This document shows, piece after piece, positions 7,265 through 17,268 of a DNA stretch of 64,000 bases. A model generated the notes under the pieces. It worked only from the letters and a program-made list of their open reading frames with translations. It was not told the DNA's origin and searched no databases. Origin of the DNA: Paramecium tetraurelia (lineage: Eukaryota > Ciliophora > Oligohymenophorea > Peniculida > Parameciidae); NCBI RefSeq assembly GCF_000165425.1, contig NW_001799017.1, forward strand, positions 124,001 to 188,000. The letters are read 5' to 3'. Each line of letters begins with the position of its first letter. Position 1 is the first letter of the stretch. A program made the position numbers and the translations under genes.

Positions 7265-8862
7265 TCACATTGTATTTTCTACTTCTTCATCACATTCTTT
7301 CATTCCCAAAAGATCAAGAGTTGAAATAAGTTAATTTTATCTATTGTTTGAACCAGTTTCTTGAATGCTGTCTGTTAAATTGATATCTATACTGCATTCT
7401 ACCTTCCCACCAATCTAGTTTACAAATTATTAAAGTGGATTTCTCCTCTTTTCCTCAATTTATATATAGTTTCCTGTATTGCCTAGATCGACGCTGGATT
7501 ATATATTACAAAGATCTCCAAAACAATCTTATACCTAATTTTCAGCAGATACTTATTATATAGGTAAATATTTACATATACTCTACGAAGACCCTATCCC
7601 TAAATTGCATTTTCCATTACTATTGTTTGCTTCAATTTAGTTATTACCAGAACTATTACCAAGAGAATTGATTAATTATATTAGACCTGGATAATTTTCT
7701 CCATTCCTCTTTTAGACTACATGAATATTACCAAGTTCGTATATTAAATCTTCAATTACTATGTCTTAATATTCTAATCCAAGATGCAAAGTTTTTAATG
7801 CTCGATGCAAATTCTATTTTTAATTAATAGATAAACTGGTCTATAATGATTTGCACTTATTTGCTAATCCTTCATCTTCTTCAATTATCTTTGTTGACGA
7901 AAGCATTGCAATAGTAGTATATATTTGATTTTTTTCTATAAAAGGATGAGCTAATGCCTCCATTGGAGTAATTCTTTTTTTTGGATCAGCTGACAAAAGT
8001 CTAGATAATAGATTTTAAGCACTAAGGGATTCTTCCTTAACTCTGTTCTTGAAATTCCATTATTCAGGCTTCTTTAACAAATCAATTTAGTCATTAATAG
8101 AATTCGAATGTAAAGGCAATTCACCTGTCATACATTAAAACATAATGACTCCTACGCTCCATACGTCTACTTCTTTAGAGTAATGTGGCTAATGGTAAAT
8201 TTCAGGTGCGCAGTAATATATGTTGCCTGTTTTAGTGAGCATTTCAAGGTGCTAACTTTTTTATATAAACCTTCTTGAAACACCGAAATCAAGCAATTTT
8301 AATTCACAATCGCCCTCAATATTGACCAAAATATTATCCGGCTTTATATCTCTGTGGCTTATTCCTTTATTATGGATGTGTTGGATTGCAGTCAATAACT
8401 GTTTGATGACTTATCTAGTTTCTTCTTCTCTTAAAATTTTCCTCTATACTAATATTGATTCCAAAGTAGGATAAGGACAATATTCCATAACCAAACACGC
8501 ACTGCAATACTTTTCATTTATAAACAATTCTATCTCCTAAATTATGTTTTGATGTCGCAAACAACGAGCATTATAAAATGTTCTCTTAACATTATTATAT
8601 ATTTCCTCATTATTCATTCTCGTTACTTTTACTGCATATAATTCATTAGTTTCTTTTCTCCTTGCCAATTTTACTACTGCATGTGCTCCCTATCCTACAA
8701 ATCACTAAAATTCTTACCCAGCACTTACAATGCCTCATATCTATCTTCAAATTTTATAGCATCATCAACCACACTCAAACTAATTATTTCTGGCTTCTCT
8801 TCGTCTTCACCAAATTCTATTTTGCATTTCAGTCTCTCTTTTAAAGATTTATCTTACAACAT
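7265..8862 (-). CDS. Ser/Thr protein kinase, CAMK-like
   Basis: Protein kinase that should transfer ATP phosphate to Ser/Thr. Start ATG 8862-8860, stop 7267-7265; a 23-nt intron near 8704-8726 restores the glycine loop, giving 524 residues. Visible motifs in order: VLGQGAHAVVK (ATP loop, about residue 50), YAVKVTR (catalytic Lys), HRDIKPDN (catalytic loop), DFGV, then TGNIYYCAPE (activation segment and APE) and DVWSVGVIMF. The domain ends near HPFIEKN, a typical CAMK-type end. A C-terminal region of about 190 residues, helical then Asn-rich, has no EF hands that I can see, so it is not an ordinary calcium-dependent kinase. All catalytic residues are present, so activity is expected. Confidence 0.92.
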
Positions 8863-9102
8863 AATAATTATATAAATTTATGATAAAAATACTTGTAATA
8901 TCATATCTCATTCAATTAAGACAATTTTTTATTAAATTATACTGATTCAATTTCGTGTTGATTGCTTAAGATAATATTTCAATTATTATCACTTTAATTT
9001 ATTTTTAGATCAATTTTATTTCATAATTCTACTATGTAAAATTCTTATCATCCTAACAATCATTTAACTATTAACATGCATACTATAGACAAATTGATAG
9101 AT
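8863..9102. other. AT-rich spacer upstream of the kinase gene
   Basis: No gene or structured element is visible. It should hold the kinase promoter, because the kinase start codon lies at its left edge. Confidence 0.5.
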
Positions 9103-9363
9103 TCATCCCTTTCTAAATTTGAATTTTGTTTTTTAAATTATTATAACCGCTTTAAACAAAAATTAATTTATGTTCCCTTTAATAAATTGAAAATCCCAAT
9201 GAATTGCTGGGATCAAGCTATTACAATTAAAATGACTTATTAAAATTCTATTAATATCTTCATTACTTAAAATCTCTTCAGCAATATTATAATAATGTCT
9301 TTCCAAAGTATCTAATTTTTTGATACTTCTTAATTTACAATATATGTACTTGGCAATTATCAT
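9103..9363 (-). CDS. Possible small protein crossing the duplication edge
   Basis: A TGA-only frame of 86 codons from ATG 9363 to TGA 9105-9103. The first 57 codons lie inside the duplicated block and the rest outside it. The N-terminal part looks coding (DTLERHYYNIAEEIL, SNEDINRILISHF); the C-terminal end is Lys/Phe-rich and less convincing. In the second copy the same frame begins at 15045 but is diverted at the breakpoint 14874. No family recognised. Confidence 0.35.
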
Positions 9364-9507
9364 TATGCTAATTTAATTATTTTTCGAATTCCATAAGACG
9401 ATTAATAAATTTAAAAGATTTAATTTTTTCCTTTAATATCCAAGAAATAATAATAATATCTAAAGGCTATTTTTATACTTAATTAGCCCTTAATAAAATT
9501 ATTATAT

Positions 9508-9618
9508 TATATCAGATCTATTTTTATTTTTATATTTTGTTTTTAAAACTCTTCAATTAATTATAAATTATTTTAATCATGTTAATGCTAAATCAATTCT
9601 TCTACTACTTTTAGTGTA
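9508..9618. mobile_element. Candidate retained internal eliminated sequence (IES), 111 nt
   Basis: This segment is present in copy A and precisely missing from copy B. It can be drawn so that it begins with TA and is followed by another TA (T9619-A9620), leaving a single TA in copy B, which is the signature of Paramecium IES excision. The left end TATATCAG agrees with the known end consensus TAYAGYNR at 7 of 8 positions; the right end read inwards, TATACACT, agrees at 5 of 8. It is very AT-rich and has no open frame. A simple deletion between short TAT repeats would leave a similar scar. Confidence 0.5.
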
Positions 9619-10018
9619 TATGTATACAACTAGTGTTTGCCAAAAATTATATACTGTCAAATATATTTTTAATTTATTATATTCTTAATTCATTTGGTGA
9701 GTTTTTCTCGAAAAAATTATATTCACAATATTTCAGCCAATCAGAATCAAAATTACAAATGTCTCAAAGATTCTTTCATTCAATTCTTATGCTAAACAAT
9801 TAATTCTTGTGTTAACCAATTCATTCAATGTTTACTTATTTGTAATCCTAAAATATCTGAAAAATTAATCTTAATTAGAGAATAAAAGCTATTAAATTAT
9901 TATATTTGAATACTAATTTTTTTCAATAAAAATGAATTTTTGACCATTAATTACTAATGAAGAAGTTTGGAATCATTAACATTACTTATAAGTATATATT
10001 AATTTAATTTAATTCCTT

Positions 10019-10577
10019 TCAAAATTAAATACAAAAATTTTAATTTAAATTTTCATTTTCCTTTTTTTTTTCATTTTTTTTTTCATTTTTTTTTTCATGC
10101 AATAAGAGTCTATATGGTCTCACATCTTCTGAATTATTAACAACGAAAAATTGTTTTGATTTCATCATTTTACTTTATTTAATTTTCTTGGGATTTACTC
10201 TTGACATAAAAATAGGTGCAAATTATTTTTCACCAACCTAAGTGTATTTAGCATATTAATTATCAATACAGACCTTAATATCATTTGAAAAATAAATTCC
10301 TTTTCCAACTTTAACTTTCTCTCCAAGCTCATTAATACATTCATCATTTTAATGATGTTATTTCTCACCACTTATTAAATTGTTTTTTATAATTGAATTA
10401 ACAGCACCTTAATTGGTACCATGATACATAATTCTCCATTCTTTTGGATTACCATCCATTTTTAACCAATCATTTCCATGTTCTTTTACCTACTTTTCTA
10501 CATTTAACCCAAATCCATAGCAACCTATTGGAAAATAATAATCATATCTATGATAAGGAGGCCCTCTCTATTTTTTT
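10019..10577 (-). pseudogene. 3' fragment of the ADP-ribosyltransferase-like gene, cut by the gap
   Basis: Copy of codons for the C-terminal domain of the intact gene at 15590-17268, with the same stop (TGA 10021-10019) and the same A-rich repeats near the end. The frame enters from the N gap; the upstream coiled-coil half of the gene is not here. Beyond the gap the next coding sequence belongs to a different gene, so as assembled this is a fragment. It may be an assembly duplicate rather than a true partial gene. Confidence 0.75.
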
Positions 10578-10727
10578 NNNNNNNNNNNNNNNNNNNNNNN
10601 NNNNNNNNNNNNNNNNNNNNNNNNNNNNNNNNNNNNNNNNNNNNNNNNNNNNNNNNNNNNNNNNNNNNNNNNNNNNNNNNNNNNNNNNNNNNNNNNNNNN
10701 NNNNNNNNNNNNNNNNNNNNNNNNNNN
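10578..10727. other. Assembly gap, 150 N
   Basis: A run of exactly 150 N. Both flanks are T runs (seven T before, four after), so the join lies in a homopolymer. The gap separates the ART-like fragment from the 3' end of the next minus-strand gene. Confidence 0.99.
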
Positions 10728-12202
10728 TTTTCAGTTAAATATTTCCTTTACAACTAATTAGCACTGACTATAATTTTTCTTAAGTAGGATTAGAGCTTTT
10801 CGCTAGAGGAGATAGTTATCATTTTTTCCATATTTTACAACATTTCTAAAGGTTCAACTAAATTTGCTCTTGGACCTCCATCCATTTTGTCAGGCAATAG
10901 AGCTTTAGATTTACTAGTCCAATCACTATATATTTATAGTATTTTCTTAAACAAGTTCAAATACATATCCTTATATTGTTCGTAATCTTAATCAGGTGCA
11001 TCTTATTTATTAGAGGATGATTTAAAATCCATATCGTATTGATGTTTGCTAACTTATTGTTTGATTTCTAAATCCTTTTGTAGATGCAAAAGTTATTTTT
11101 CAAGTTAAATGTTGTCGAGCTCTAAATCTGACACTCTTTTGGTGAGAATCAAGTTTTAATTCTCAAAATAATCATATTTATCTATGAATTTTTCAGCTTA
11201 AAAGTTTTCGAACCTCTTAGTCATAATGTTGAATTAAGGAATGAACTTTTCAATTTCAACTGTGCTCCTCTTGAGTTCGTCTAATTATTATTTGGGAAGC
11301 TTGATTTCTTTGAGAAGTTGAATATTCTTAAAATTCAGACTTTCCATTCGAACTCTACAATTCAAAGATCTTCCCCTTAGCCATTTCTAATTAATCCACA
11401 AGTTCTTAGCTAATTATAGATAATAGGGTACTTTTCTCTTGTAAATTTATCGATGTAGATGAGCATTTATTGTGTAACTTACTCTAATTAGAGCCTTGGA
11501 TTCGCTCAAGACTTTTTCTTTGGCAAGATTATTGATCATCGTATAAAGAGAGTTCTCTGCCTTTTATTTGATTTCCAGAATGGCTCTTCTTCTTGGATTC
11601 ATTTTAGCCATTTCTGAGGTGCTTTTGACCAAGTTTTCAATGGTTTTTTTGGGTTGGAAACTCTGAGTCTTGATTTACAGTTTTTTCTTGAGACTGCTTG
11701 AAGTATGCTTTTGCGTATTCAATGCTGACTTAGTTTACAAATATATATTACAGAAACTTAAAGTTTAAATTCTTCATCAATGGGTCCTGGTTTGGTGTAA
11801 ATATAATTTCCGAAAGCATCAAAAACAATTCTATGAAAGTTTTTTTTGAATTGCTCATATTCATCCTGATTAATTTACACTTCCTTTTCGAAATAGTCCT
11901 CTGGTGGATCAATTTCAGCCTATTCTTTTGTAACCCTCAAATTGCACGATACATTTTCAGATCTTGCTCCTACATTGACTTTCTTCTCTTGCAACTTGAG
12001 CAAACTCCTTGGTGTGAGACTTGTAGCGGCAGTATATTTGTTGATTAATAGTTATTGATCTTGATCATCATTTGGAATAGATAGTCTAAGATGCAATATT
12101 TATTTACTGAAATTGAGGTCTTCGAGGGCTTGTCACAGCTGTTTATGGTCTTGTGCGAGCTGAACTTAAGAAAGAGCTCTTAGGACTTGTGTGAACAGAC
12201 AT
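10728..12202 (-). CDS. Coiled-coil protein, 3' end lost in the gap
   Basis: Not recognised by name. ATG 12202-12200; introns of 22 nt (GTAAAT...CTTAG) and 23 nt (GTAATA...CTAAG) join the frame, which stays open into the gap, so the C-terminus is missing. The first 80 residues are Ser/Thr/Arg/Pro-rich. A short ordered block follows (DAFGNYIYTKPGPIDEEF), then a long helical part with heptads (for example LILTKRVSDLELDN, ELLKEIKLPKQQLDELK). The C-terminal visible part, DWTSKSKALLPDKMDGGPRA, looks folded. The overall shape is that of a cytoskeletal or ciliary coiled-coil protein, which is inference. It is divergent from the phosphagen kinase with 198 nt between start codons. Confidence 0.75.
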
Positions 12203-12400
12203 TTTAATAATAGTTATATTAATAAATGAAGATTTTGTCATACTAGTTGAGTGGAGTATTGTTGGAAATCATTAGAAATTAAGGAGAAAATCAAAGTATT
12301 GTAAAAGGGAAGTTATGTATTCCCATTATGTTTAATTAATTTGGTGAATTTATATACGTTTTTAACAAAAATGAAGTGATAAAGTTATTTATAAATTGCA
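12203..12400. promoter_or_regulatory. Shared divergent upstream region
   Basis: The 198 nt between the start codons of the coiled-coil gene (minus) and the phosphagen kinase gene (plus). AT-rich. No specific motif can be named, but both promoters must lie here or overlap the coding ends. Confidence 0.5.
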
Positions 12401-13588
12401 ATGTCTTAACACAAAATCTTTGCTAAATAGGATGTAAGGAAGCTCTACTTAGATGAACAAGGGAATGTTGATTTTAATAAGATATAGGCCAGATGGGATG
12501 AGTTGAAGAATATAAAGGTGAGCTTAGCCAACAAACATTATACTCAAGCAGTAGTTGAGAAGGTGAAAACAATGTCTGCTGAAGACTAATAACGATTCTT
12601 AGATATAGTGATAGCCGGTCTAACAAATGATGATAGCTAAGTTGGTATATCAGCCACAAGACCAGAGGATTATGATGTTTTTCTGTTTTATCTAGAACCA
12701 ATAATCAGAGAATATCATAAGATCGAAGGGGAGACGAAGCAAGAACATGATTGGAATATCCCAGTTGGTGAATATGTATTAACAAAGATTGATCCTGCAT
12801 TGGAGAAGGTTTCAATGAGAGCCAGAGTGGCCAGAAATGTTGTTGGTTACAATTTACCATCATCAATGGATAAGGATGAGAGGATCAAATTTGAGAATCA
12901 AATGGTAACTGTGTTTGAAAACTTTGGAATTCCAGGAAATTATTACAGTCTAACACCAGGTCATAAGAATTTTATATCAGATCAAAAGGCTGATGAGTTA
13001 AGGAAAAGGCATTTCTTATTTATAGATATGACAAGTGACAATCATTTAATGTCGAATGGTGTAGCATCAGATTGGCCATTTGGAAGAGGAATCTGGATAA
13101 GTTAAGATGAGAGTAAAATGGTTTGGGTAGGAGAAGAAGATTAATTAAGAATTATTTCAATTGTCTAAGGAAATGATTTAGGCAAGGTTGATTAATCCCT
13201 TCATGAATTATTAAATGGTATTGAAAAGAGTGGTCTCAAATTTGCTGAGCATCCAGTCTATGGTATCATAACAACATGTCCAACCAATATGGGAACTGGA
13301 AAAAGATAATCTATCTTGGGCAAATTCCCAAATCTTAGTAAAGCTGGAACAGACGAAGCCAATTTGAAAGATAAAGCAAAATCAATTGGATTATAAGCAA
13401 GAGGAATCGGTGGTGAGCACTCATCTGTGGATCAAGAAGGAACTGCTGACATTTCCCCATCAGCAAGATTTGGTGTCACAGAAGCTATTGTAACCAAGAG
13501 GTTATTTGAAGGATTAATTGTGCTCTATTAAATAGAAAAAACAACAGTTCCAGAAAAGGCTAGAAATAATTGTTGCACAATATTTTGA
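12401..13588 (+). CDS. Arginine-kinase-family phosphagen kinase
   Basis: ATP:guanido phosphotransferase, which reversibly moves phosphate between ATP and a guanidino compound, buffering ATP at sites of high use such as cilia. Intronless, ATG 12401 to TGA 13586-13588, 395 residues, near the usual family length. The reactive-Cys motif reads TTCPTNMGTG. Other blocks match: SMRARVARN (nucleotide-binding arginines), WPFGRGIW, WVGEEDQLRIIS and GIGGEHSSV. Changes from animal enzymes, such as SMRAR for STRVR and GVASDWPFGRG for ANACRFWPTGRG, prevent me from naming the substrate. Paramecium is known to have ciliary arginine kinases, so arginine is the best guess. No targeting extension is visible. Confidence 0.92.
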
Positions 13589-13711
13589 ATATCTTAATAC
13601 AAAAATATCAAATATTTATTTCAATGTTGTTCTAATTAAACTCAAATTTAATAGCAAATATGATCAATTTAAATATAAATAATTAATTTTATTGATAATT
13701 TTAACAATAAA

Positions 13712-14873
13712 TCATCTCAATTTACTTATTTTCCATTAGAATATAGAATTGTCTTCTCCGCCAATACTAAACAAGTAATGATCTTCCATTGACCAAGCAA
13801 TGTTGGTAATATGAGATGAATGTCCTTTTCCTAAGATGTATGCTGATTCTTTCTTAACGCAAGGATATCTATATTATTACATTTAGCATATACCTAAATA
13901 CTTTGATTTATGAGTTATCATCACCAGTTGCAATCAAATGATAATTATCAGGGGGTTTATCCTTTTCATTATATGTCTTATTTGATCTGACAGCAGCATT
14001 GATATCACTGCCATCTTAGATATCTGGCCATATTCCTTAAACTGGCCATCCGTATGGTGTAGTCCAAGTCAACCATTTCTCATCTCTTAATTAATTTGCT
14101 CCATTTGGCAATTATTTACCAGTTTGAAGTTCCCAAAACAATAGTTCATATCTGAATAACATAAGTATTAATTAGATACCCTCCGCAATTGCTATGAAGA
14201 TGATTTCCATCTATGGAGAAATCAATATGAGTAATGTAGCTTGAATGTTTCTTGAGTGGTTTGTAACGTTGTTTCATATCTGGGAAACTGTAGATATATA
14301 TGGAATTATCATGAGATCCAATTGCAATCCAAGATTGATCATGACTGAATTTGATATCACTAATCCACTCTTTGGCTAATCTATTAACATATTTTTATTT
14401 GAATTCTTTATCATATATCTTAAGTTAATTACTTATAAAATACCCTAAATGTTCCATCCTTAAATCCTACGCATATTGAAATACCATCCAAAGAAACAGC
14501 TATACATCTACCTTTTGTATTATCAGGCAATTCACCAACTTCATCTTGTTTGATTTCTGCTCCATTAACATCAAGATTGGTTTTGATGCAATTGAGCATT
14601 TTCTTTTGACTGATAGACCAAGATCTTAGAGTTCCATCATCTCCACAAGTATAGTATTGATCAGAATCTTGTGGATTAATAGCCAAACCCCAAATTTCAT
14701 TCAAAGATCGCTTATTTGGAGAACAATGAGATTTCATTAAGGTTTTAGAAACAGCAAATTTGGAGTTAATATTGATTTTGGCATCTTTAGTAACTAATTC
14801 AACAATATCTCCAGCATTAGTTGATATAAGTAAAGTCTTCTAATCATACCCTAACGATATGGACTTGACTTCT
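13712..14873 (-). CDS. EML-family WD40 protein, 5' part missing
   Basis: C-terminal beta-propeller of an echinoderm microtubule-associated protein-like (EML) protein, a family that binds microtubules. Ends at TGA 13714-13712. Introns of 25, 28 and 25 nt join about 361 residues of WD repeats. Diagnostic blocks: EVKSISLGYDQKTLLIST, TCGDDGTLRSW, GYELLFWELQTGK, WLTWTTPYGWPVQGIWPD, ATGDDNSQIKVFRYPC and SIGGEDNSIFQWK, the last four being the classic EML C-terminus. At 14874 the sequence switches to duplicated copy B and the EML frame soon meets TGA, so the N-terminal propeller and HELP motif are absent from this assembly. It converges on the phosphagen kinase gene, with 123 nt between stops. Confidence 0.9.
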
Positions 14874-15045
14874 AATCCCAATGAATTGCTGGGATCAAGC
14901 TATTACAATTAAAATGACTTATTAAAATTCTATTAATATCTTCATTACTTAAAATCTCTTCAGCAATATTATAATAATGTCTTTCCAAAGTATCTAATTT
15001 TTTGATACTTCTTAATTTACAATATATGTACTTGGCAATTATCAT
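14874..15045 (-). pseudogene. Truncated copy of the small gene at 9103-9363
   Basis: Same first 57 codons as the copy at 9103-9363. Past 14874 the frame runs into the EML sequence in a different reading frame, so the original C-terminal end is lost. Whether this is a real chimeric junction or a mis-assembly cannot be decided here. The 540 nt from 15046 to 15589 hold no gene that I can see. Confidence 0.4.
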
Positions 15046-16148
15046 TATGCTAATTTAATTATTTTTCGAATTCCATAAGACGATTAATAAATTTAAAAGA
15101 TTTAATTTTTTCCTTTAATATCCAAGAAATAATAATAATATCTAAAGGCTATTTTTATACTTAATTAGCCCTTAATAAAATTATTATATTATGTATACAA
15201 CTAGTGTTTGCCAAAAATTATATACTGTCAAATATATTTTTAATTTATTATATTCTTAATTCATTTGGTGAGTTTTTCTCGAAAAAATTATATTCACAAT
15301 ATTTCAGCCAATCAGAATCAAAATTACAAATGTCTCAAAGATTCTTTCATTCAATTCTTATGCTAAACAATTAATTCTTGTGTTAACCAATTCATTCAAT
15401 GTTTACTTATTTGTAATCCTAAAATATCTGAAAAATTAATCTTAATTAGAGAATAAAAGCTATTAAATTATTATATTTGAATACTAATTTTTTTCAATAA
15501 AAATGAATTTTTGACCATTAATTACTAATGAAGAAGTTTGGAATCATTAACATTACTTATAAGTATATATTAATTTAATTTAATTCCTTTCAAAATTAAA
15601 TACAAAAATTTTAATTTAAATTTTCATTTTCCTTTTTTTTTTCATTTTTTTTTTCATTTTTTTTTTCATGCAATAAGAGTCTATATGGTCTCACATCTTC
15701 TGAATTATTAACAACGAAAAATTGTTTTGATTTCATCATTTTACTTTATTTAATTTTCTTGGGATTTACTCTTGACATAAAAATAGGTGCAAATTATTTT
15801 TCACCAACCTAAGTGTATTTAGCATATTAATTATCAATACAGACCTTAATATCATTTGAAAAATAAATTCCTTTTCCAACTTTAACTTTCTCTCCAAGCT
15901 CATTAATACATTCATCATTTTAATGATGTTATTTCTCACCACTTATTAAATTGTTTTTTATAATTGAATTAACAGCACCTTAATTGGTACCATGATACAT
16001 AATTCTCCATTCTTTTGGATTACCATCCATTTTTAACCAATCATTTCCATGTTCTTTTACCTACTTTTCTACATTTAACCCAAATCCATAGCAACCTATT
16101 GGAAAATAATAATCATATCTATGATAAGGAGGCCCTCTCTATTTTTTT
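14874..16148. repeat. Duplicated block, copy B (lacks the 111-nt insert)
   Basis: Second copy of 9192-10577. The site of the missing segment is near 15190-15191, where the sequence reads ATTATGTATAC. Its left edge abuts EML coding sequence; its right edge continues without a break into the intact ADP-ribosyltransferase-like gene. It also carries the start of the small gene of copy A (ATG at 15045), whose frame is diverted at 14874. Confidence 0.9.
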
Positions 16149-17268
16149 TCATGAAAATTATCCCAGCTCATATTGTGTGAAGGATTCAAATCATCAAAAG
16201 AAAGAGTGACTCCTTTTGATTAGCTATTTGCTTGATGAAAGTATTCTACGTAATCTACATTTCCATTACAATACTCATATAAGAATTTCTTTGCTTCTGG
16301 ATTTTAAAACTATTATGAAATCCATTTCCTACTAGCTCTTATAATATTAAAGCAAATTTTCAAACTACCCTTTGATACTCCTAAAATTTCAATTTAATCA
16401 GTTGAAATATTGAGTGAACTTGATAGCTTTTACTTAAATTCTAATAAATGTTATTACAATAATTGGTTGTCATTCACAATTTTATCATAATCAAGATTTG
16501 TATTTCTTACTTTTAAACAATATTAATCTTAGCCATAATATTCAATTATTGAATCAAATCCAAAGGAATATTATTTACTTGTTGCTAATAATTCTCGATT
16601 TTGATCTCTCAATAATGATTCTTTTAAAACAAAAAGTGCCAATTCAGGATTTGAGACTTCAATATTCTATTTCACATGAGGAATTGATTTAGTTTTGCCA
16701 TAATCTTTTAATTTTGTAATTAGTTATTATTAATATTAATGTTTAAGGTATTATTTTTAATTATTTGTAAGATTCTTATTATTATCTAATTATTTAAGTT
16801 CTTTATTTAATATATCAATTTATTCCTCAATTGATTTTGAACGAATTTCTTATTATATATATATTTATTAACAAACTAATAATAAGTCTTAATTAAAAAT
16901 TTCCTTTTTCTCAAATTAATCTTTCAGTTCGGTTACAACTTTTTCTTATTTAATTAAAGTTGATTAACTTGTTGTTTATAAGTCTTATTAAAGCATTCGC
17001 TTCAATTCAAATACACATTTTTCATTATCTCCTAAAATCCTGTTTAATGTCGTTCCATCTATGCTTATATTTTTATTAAAAGTGGGCAAGAAAAATTGAT
17101 AATCCTTGCTATTTCCTTACATGCTAACATTAATTAAAGTTCTGAATACTTTAGAAATTTTATTGTTAACAATTCAAAAAGGTCTAAAGTAGAGGTAGTT
17201 TTTGCTAAAGAAGCTTAAGATTTGACCTCAAAGCAATAAATGTCGATTTCATAATATTCTGGCAGCAT
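15590..17268 (-). CDS. Coiled-coil protein with a C-terminal ADP-ribosyltransferase-like domain
   Basis: Start ATG 17268-17266, stop 15592-15590; two 22-nt introns near the 5' end give 544 residues. Residues about 70-230 are helical and Gln/Lys-rich (coiled coil). The C-terminal 200 residues have the layout of the PARP/ART fold: RIMYHGTNQGAVNSI (His of the triad), GKGIYFSNDIKV (Tyr), and FFVVNNSEDVRPYRLLL where PARPs carry the NEYVVY-type Glu strand. Here that position is not Glu, so mono-ADP-ribosylation or loss of activity is likelier than poly-ADP-ribosylation. The tail is KKNEKKNEKKK, encoded by three ATGAAAAAAAAAA units. A nearly identical fragment of the last 185 codons lies at 10019-10577. 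The assignment rests on motif layout only. Confidence 0.75.

What the first reader, a model, noticed from the sequence alone, without database searches (positions are those of the whole stretch)
9192..16148. A 1.3 kb block present twice, differing by one TA-bounded 111-nt segment
9192-10577 and 14874-16148 look identical over genes and AT-rich spacer except that 9508-9618 is missing from the second. The missing piece can be framed by TA dinucleotides with one TA left behind, and its left end fits the Paramecium IES end consensus at 7 of 8 positions. This would be a retained and an excised form of the same internal eliminated sequence side by side in one assembly, either as a real recent duplication or as two molecular forms of one locus assembled separately.
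Basis: partly seen in the sequence, partly recalled or inferred. Interest (0 to 1): 0.8.

Follow-up and report, generated by a model that had tools for sequence, protein, structure and literature searches.

The report
One locus assembled twice, one TA-indel
The same 1.3 kb of ciliate DNA appears twice beside a sequencing gap, most likely because one place in the genome was assembled twice, and the only difference between the copies is a 111-base piece of the sort that the Paramecium DNA-cutting machinery is already known to leave in or take out by mistake.

Summary
R1 thus ends because its contig ends, inside a PARP-like gene that R2 carries whole. R2's left edge falls inside an EML-like WD40 reading frame whose upstream part was not found in R2; R1's left edge lies in low-coding DNA beside a kinase gene. 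I therefore favour one locus (kinase, R, PARP-like) assembled twice, with a false or rare junction at 14873|14874, over a real duplication. The 111-nt piece is TA-framed and fits a Paramecium TA-indel, a known class of excision error. It is not shown to be an IES: the ends fit the consensus 7/8 and 5/8, 13.6% of TA-TA pairs in the window score as well, and the length lies between published size peaks. An ordinary microhomology deletion stays possible. No reads, germline data or own genome could be searched. Ordinary; low interest.

The parts
9192..10577 (.). R1: first copy of the block, with the 111-nt piece; ends at the assembly gap
   Evidence: self-BLAST; N run 10578-10727
9508..9618 (.). 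111-nt TA-framed piece absent from R2 (equivalent placements to 9511-9621); 16% GC
10578..10727 (.). 150-N assembly gap, the only run of N in the window, directly after R1
10728..14873 (.). Y: 4.1 kb between gap and R2; carries an arginine/guanidino kinase gene (12380-13588 +), the C-terminal part of an EML-like WD40 gene (minus) and an ORF that runs to the gap (minus)
13608..14873 (-). EML-like gene in several frames (introns not resolved): second beta-propeller profile covered from 1 to 266 in pieces; frame open across the R2 junction for 22 codons without ATG; no first propeller or HELP domain found in 14874-15593
14874..16148 (.). R2: second copy, without the 111-nt piece; runs on without a gap into the PARP-like gene
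15590..17122 (-). PARP-like ORF from its first ATG (Pfam PARP match below the curated cut-off); its last 559 nt are repeated at the right end of R1 (10019-10577)
7265..8904 (-). protein kinase gene left of R1; ORF 7265-8701 plus an upstream exon with possible start ATG at 8862 or 8904 (exon join not verified); low coding signal from there to 9191

Best explanation
The window is a Paramecium-type macronuclear scaffold in which one locus, kinase - spacer (R) - PARP-like gene, appears twice. Contig A ends inside the PARP-like gene at 10577 and holds the form with the 111-nt piece. Contig B holds the form without it and continues into the whole PARP-like gene, but its left 4.1 kb (Y) is joined to R by a false or rare junction at 14873|14874. 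The two ends were not merged because of that junction and the indel, so the scaffolder set them side by side across a gap of N. The 111-nt difference is most likely a TA-indel: the piece is kept on some of the many macronuclear copies and cut out on others by the PiggyMac excision machinery, either as a poorly excised IES or as erroneous excision of ordinary somatic DNA. Shown: the identity, the indel, the gap, the reading frames cut at the edges. Inferred: the organism, the single locus, the misjoin and the excision machinery.
For: No substitution over the 1275 nt of R2, AT-rich spacer included. The only N run in 64 kb starts at the base after R1. R1 keeps 559 of 1533 nt of the PARP-like ORF while R2 carries it whole. 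R2's left edge falls inside an EML-like reading frame: the second propeller is matched in Y (PF23414, best frame E 1.1e-32), the frame stays open into R2 for 22 codons without ATG, a WD40-type match begins at residue 27, upstream of the first ATG codon at residue 69 (PF25172, below cut-off), and none of the 6 hits in six frames of 14874-15593 is an EML or WD40 family. R1's left edge lies in DNA of low coding signal upstream of the kinase gene. Genetic code: 30, 15 and 43 in-frame TAA/TAG codons in three ORFs that each end in a single TGA. Of four placements of the indel one is TA-framed. Nearly 2000 TA-indels between macronuclear assembly and reads, and one cloned IES assembled into the macronuclear reference, are on record for P. 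tetraurelia (PMC3464196, passages and sections 6 and 12).
Against: Assemblies also break at true repeats, so a gap at R1 does not exclude a real duplication. The EML-like ORF has an ATG at residue 69, before the propeller match at residue 83, and a 35-nt GTAATAG...TTAG stretch could splice an open R frame to it, so the gene might not be truncated. The DNA just left of R1 (about 9064-9177) gave a below-cut-off Pfam match when a TGA was read through (DUF7851, E 7.7e-4, 20 bits against 27), so 'intergenic' is not certain. The 111-nt ends are mediocre (7/8 and 5/8; 13.6% of 73,037 TA-TA pairs 60-159 bp apart in the window reach a sum of 12); neither end has the R of the TATNR preference reported for low-frequency TA-indels, whose cryptic class peaks at 26-30 nt, far from 111 (PMC4132734 passages). 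The length is 0.42 of a period off the IES peaks (peaks from PMC3464196). A TAT microhomology would serve an ordinary deletion too: 16% of 1275 positions in R1 have at least 3 nt.
Confidence: 0.6

Rival explanations
1. A real, very recent segmental duplication: R was copied near itself together with or into Y, cutting the EML-like gene; an indel then distinguishes the copies.
For: Both copies stand in one scaffold; an assembly gap at a true repeat is common; the EML-like gene could start at an internal ATG or be spliced from R.
Against: It needs a partial PARP-like gene at the gap, an EML-like gene cut at its upstream side, and a duplication so young that 0 of 1275 sites changed; the right end of the repeat coincides with a contig end. 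Another ORF runs into the gap from Y without a stop, though its end could lie in the gap.
Confidence: 0.2
2. A bona fide IES of 111 bp, retained in contig A's molecules and excised in contig B's, at a single locus (a narrower form of the best explanation; these odds overlap with it).
For: TA at both ends with one TA left; left end 7/8; for 689 of 739 residual TA-indels an IES was found at the site in P. tetraurelia (PMC3464196 section 12).
Against: Right end 5/8, no G at position 5 of either end; length between size peaks; [quoted passage not shown]
Confidence: 0.3
3. An ordinary microhomology-mediated deletion (or cloning deletion of AT-rich DNA) unrelated to IES excision, whether at one locus or two.
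For: TAT at both ends; 16% of 1275 positions in R1 allow a 111-nt deletion with at least 3 nt of microhomology and 6% a TA-framed one. Among deletions that use microhomology in such AT-rich DNA, TA framing is therefore common and discriminates little.
Against: Against deletions at random sites, TA framing is about 15 to 22 times likelier under the excision machinery (1 over 6.5% and 4.5%); TA-indels are common in P. tetraurelia.
Confidence: 0.25
4. The Y|R2 junction is a real rearranged macronuclear molecule (mis-repair between breaks at two loci), not an assembly or cloning fault.
For: Developing ciliate macronuclei join very many breaks (established knowledge, not from a call).
Against: The junction is not TA-framed on the R1 side: X|R1 reads GAA|AAT where Y|R2 reads TCT|AAT; chimeric clones and misjoins are, by general experience, commoner.
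Confidence: 0.08

Closest known systems
TA-indels of the Paramecium tetraurelia macronucleus ('residual' and 'low-frequency'; PMC3464196, PMC4132734)
   Same: Two forms of one somatic sequence that differ by a piece framed by TA, with one TA kept; weak resemblance of ends to the IES consensus
   Different: Known from comparing reads with the assembly; here both forms sit in one assembly as separate contig pieces, frequencies are unknown, and 111 nt is far from the 26-30 nt peak of the cryptic class
Paramecium internal eliminated sequence (IES)
   Same: Short, AT-rich, TA-framed, one end TATATCAG close to TAYAGYNR
   Different: Second end TATACACT fits poorly, length between the periodic peaks, no germline or PiggyMac evidence
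Unmerged overlapping contig ends in a draft scaffold (general experience, no call)
   Same: Identical sequence on both sides of a run of N
   Different: 4.1 kb of other sequence stands between the gap and the second copy, so one join must be wrong or rare as well

Membership tests
Paramecium IES | Bounded by TA on both sides, one TA left after excision | tested here: met
   placement 9508-9618
Paramecium IES | Inverted end consensus TAYAGYNR at both ends | tested here: inconclusive
   7/8 and 5/8; 13.6% of 73,037 TA-TA pairs in the window do as well in sum
Paramecium IES | Length on a peak of the ~10.2-bp periodic distribution | tested here: inconclusive
   111 bp is 0.42 period from the series 45.5 + 10.2k, built from the peaks named in PMC3464196. 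This speaks against an IES, but the peaks are a tendency and the histogram itself was not seen.
Paramecium IES | Present in germline DNA, retained after PiggyMac depletion, removed from the macronucleus | not testable with these tools
   No genome held for the window; no reads at hand
TA-indel | Both forms exist at one somatic locus, differing by a TA-framed piece | tested here: inconclusive
   Two forms seen and TA-framed; single locus only inferred from gap and gene context
TA-indel | End preference TATNR of low-frequency TA-indels | tested here: inconclusive
   Ends TATAT and TATAC share TAT but 0 of 2 have R at position 5; the preference is described as weak
Real segmental duplication | Both copies on one molecule with own flanks | not testable with these tools
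   R1 has no right flank in the assembly because of the gap

The most novel reading that the evidence does not exclude
A somatic chromosome on which a 1.3 kb block was duplicated so recently that no base has changed, with an IES kept in one copy and cut from the other on the same molecule, which would allow comparison of excision at two identical sites in different surroundings.
Probability: 0.06. Interest if true: 0.6.

Novelty: new member of a known kind. Interest (0 to 1): 0.15.

Why it matters
If the reading is right, the scaffold has a wrong join at 14873|14874 and a redundant overlap, which would mislead gene models (a doubled PARP-like 3' end and a cut EML-like gene), and one more TA-indel is documented. 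If both copies are real and on one molecule, they would be a natural test of whether excision depends on flanking context.

Tried and rejected
Whole-genome search of the window's own assembly: none is held. tRNA scan (bacterial settings) and Rfam scan of the window at gathering scores: no hit. Scan of the bacterial/archaeal genome collection for one 30-base piece of R, in case of stray Paramecium contigs: 0 matches. First coding model was trained on two ORFs only and gave negative scores nearly everywhere; discarded and replaced by a codon model from 16 ORFs. The idea that Y|R2 is itself an IES-type excision junction was dropped because X|R1 has no TA at the corresponding place. Macronuclear telomere repeats as a cause of the contig end: no two-unit CCCCAA/CCCAAA run in the window. 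PDB search with one EML-like ORF gave 3 chains, two Ciao1 and one WDR3, that is, general WD40 proteins, so the truncation argument rests on Pfam and the open frame. The likeness of the stretch EVKSISLG... to the end of the EML first propeller, and the usual order of EML domains, are recalled, not from a call.

Literature: one search found no paper. Searches gave listings (3, 25 of which 20 were listed, 4, 1 and 6 papers). Two papers were opened: PMC3464196 (passages; sections 6 and 12) and PMC4132734 (passages). The searches for misassemblies and chimeric junctions were judged from their listings only. The earlier paper that first described TA-indels (reference 29 of PMC3464196) was not seen. 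The species was not established.

Full report
What is there. Self-comparison of the window finds one repeat: 9192-10577 (R1) and 14874-16148 (R2), identical in two pieces of 319 and 959 nt with no mismatch. Cutting 111 nt out of R1 gives R2 exactly. The cut can be placed at 9508-9618 or up to three bases to the right, and only the first placement has TA at both ends.

What was overlooked. The window holds a single run of N, 150 long, at 10578-10727, and it begins at the base after R1 ends. R1 thus ends where a contig ends. The same base in R2 (16148) is followed without a break by the rest of a PARP-like ORF (15590-17173 minus, first ATG at 17122; Pfam PARP match E 1.8e-4, 21.5 bits, below the curated cut-off of 26.7). 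R1 keeps 559 of that ORF's 1533 nt.

Gene context. The code is ciliate-like: the kinase, arginine-kinase and PARP-like ORFs have 30, 15 and 43 in-frame TAA/TAG codons and end in one TGA each. Left of R1 lies a protein kinase gene (Pfam Pkinase E 1.2e-59) with a possible start ATG at 8862 or 8904 (the exon join was not verified), and low coding signal from about 8820 to the junction. One result qualifies this: with TGA read through, about 9064-9177 gave a below-cut-off match to DUF7851 (E 7.7e-4, 20 bits against 27).

Left of R2 lies an EML-like WD40 gene on the minus strand. Its second beta-propeller (PF23414) is covered from profile position 1 to 266 in pieces lying in different frames. The frame runs on across 14873|14874 for 22 codons to a TGA without an ATG. 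Six read-through frames of 14874-15593 gave 6 Pfam hits at E up to 1, all below cut-off and none of an EML or WD40 family. EML proteins normally have another propeller and a HELP region before this point (established knowledge, recalled), so the gene looks cut at the junction. Two results speak against a firm claim: there is an ATG at residue 69, before the propeller match that starts at residue 83, and a 35-nt GT...AG stretch could splice an R frame to it. On the other hand a below-cut-off WD40-type match (PF25172) starts at residue 27, upstream of that ATG. At the other end of Y a minus-strand ORF with coding signal from about 10818 runs into the gap without a stop, though the last 90 nt score low and its end may lie in the gap.

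Inference on structure. If the locus is single, kinase - R - PARP-like gene, the genes at R's borders are whole, and 10728-14873 is a fragment of another place joined at 14873|14874. If R is truly duplicated here, a partial PARP-like gene stands at the gap, the EML-like gene is cut at R2, and the duplication is so young that 0 of 1275 sites differ. I judge the single locus more likely (about three to one, a judgement). Whether the junction is a chimeric clone, a misjoin or a rare somatic molecule cannot be told from the sequence.

The 111-nt piece. It is 16% GC against 19% in 300 nt of flanks; the best 90-nt coding score inside it is 3.2, against up to 9.2 in the kinase and PARP-like genes nearby. 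Its TA-framed ends read TATATCAG (7/8 to TAYAGYNR) and TATACACT (5/8). Three of the eight positions (T, A, N) are given once TA framing is accepted, and both ends miss the G. By chance 4.5% of 198,908 random 111-nt deletions in the window and 6.5% of 718 positions in the spacer can be TA-framed. Given TA at both ends, 11.8% of 73,037 pairs 60-159 bp apart have one end of 7/8 or better and 13.6% reach the summed score of 12. The published size peaks (45-46, 55-56, 65-66, period 10.2; PMC3464196) put 111 at 0.42 of a period from a peak. Thus TA framing favours the excision machinery moderately against random-site deletions and little against microhomology-driven ones, and the end match adds almost nothing.

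Comparison with the known. In P. tetraurelia, 739 residual and 1090 low-frequency TA-indels were found between assembly and Sanger reads; for 689 of the 739 an IES was found at the site, 249 of the 1090 use a known IES insertion site at one end, and the authors state that TA-indels cannot be considered IESs without further experimental support (PMC3464196 section 12). One previously cloned IES had been assembled into the macronuclear reference (section 6). PMC4132734 (passages) lists retention, alternative boundaries and cryptic excision as the three error types, with a weak TATNR end preference and a length peak at 26-30 nt for the cryptic class; our piece shares TAT but not R at either end and is longer. 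The present case fits the class of TA-indels in outline, not in every trait. I could not establish the species, and no reads, germline data or own genome were available.

Verdict. The sequence observation is real. The duplication is probably an assembly matter. The indel is probably a TA-indel, and whether it is an IES is open. Low interest.

Noticed in passing
12380-13588 (+): Arginine/guanidino kinase gene with N- and C-terminal Pfam domains (E 6.7e-18 and 4.4e-55) in the 4.1 kb between gap and R2.
   Followed up: partly
15590-15740 (-), repeated at 10019-10169: C-terminal KKNEKKNEKKKENEN-type tail of the PARP-like protein, encoded by three runs of about ten T; identical in both copies.
   Followed up: no
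9240-9360 (-), repeated at 14922-15042: Short stretch of weak coding signal (TLERHYYNIAEEILSNEDINRILISH) in otherwise weakly or non-coding spacer; perhaps a gene remnant.
   Followed up: partly
11486-11710 (-): Below-cut-off Hsp70 match in the ORF that runs into the gap (E 5.5e-4; 0.0012).
   Followed up: no
9064-9177 (-): Below-cut-off DUF7851 match across a TGA, just left of R1 (E 7.7e-4).
   Followed up: no
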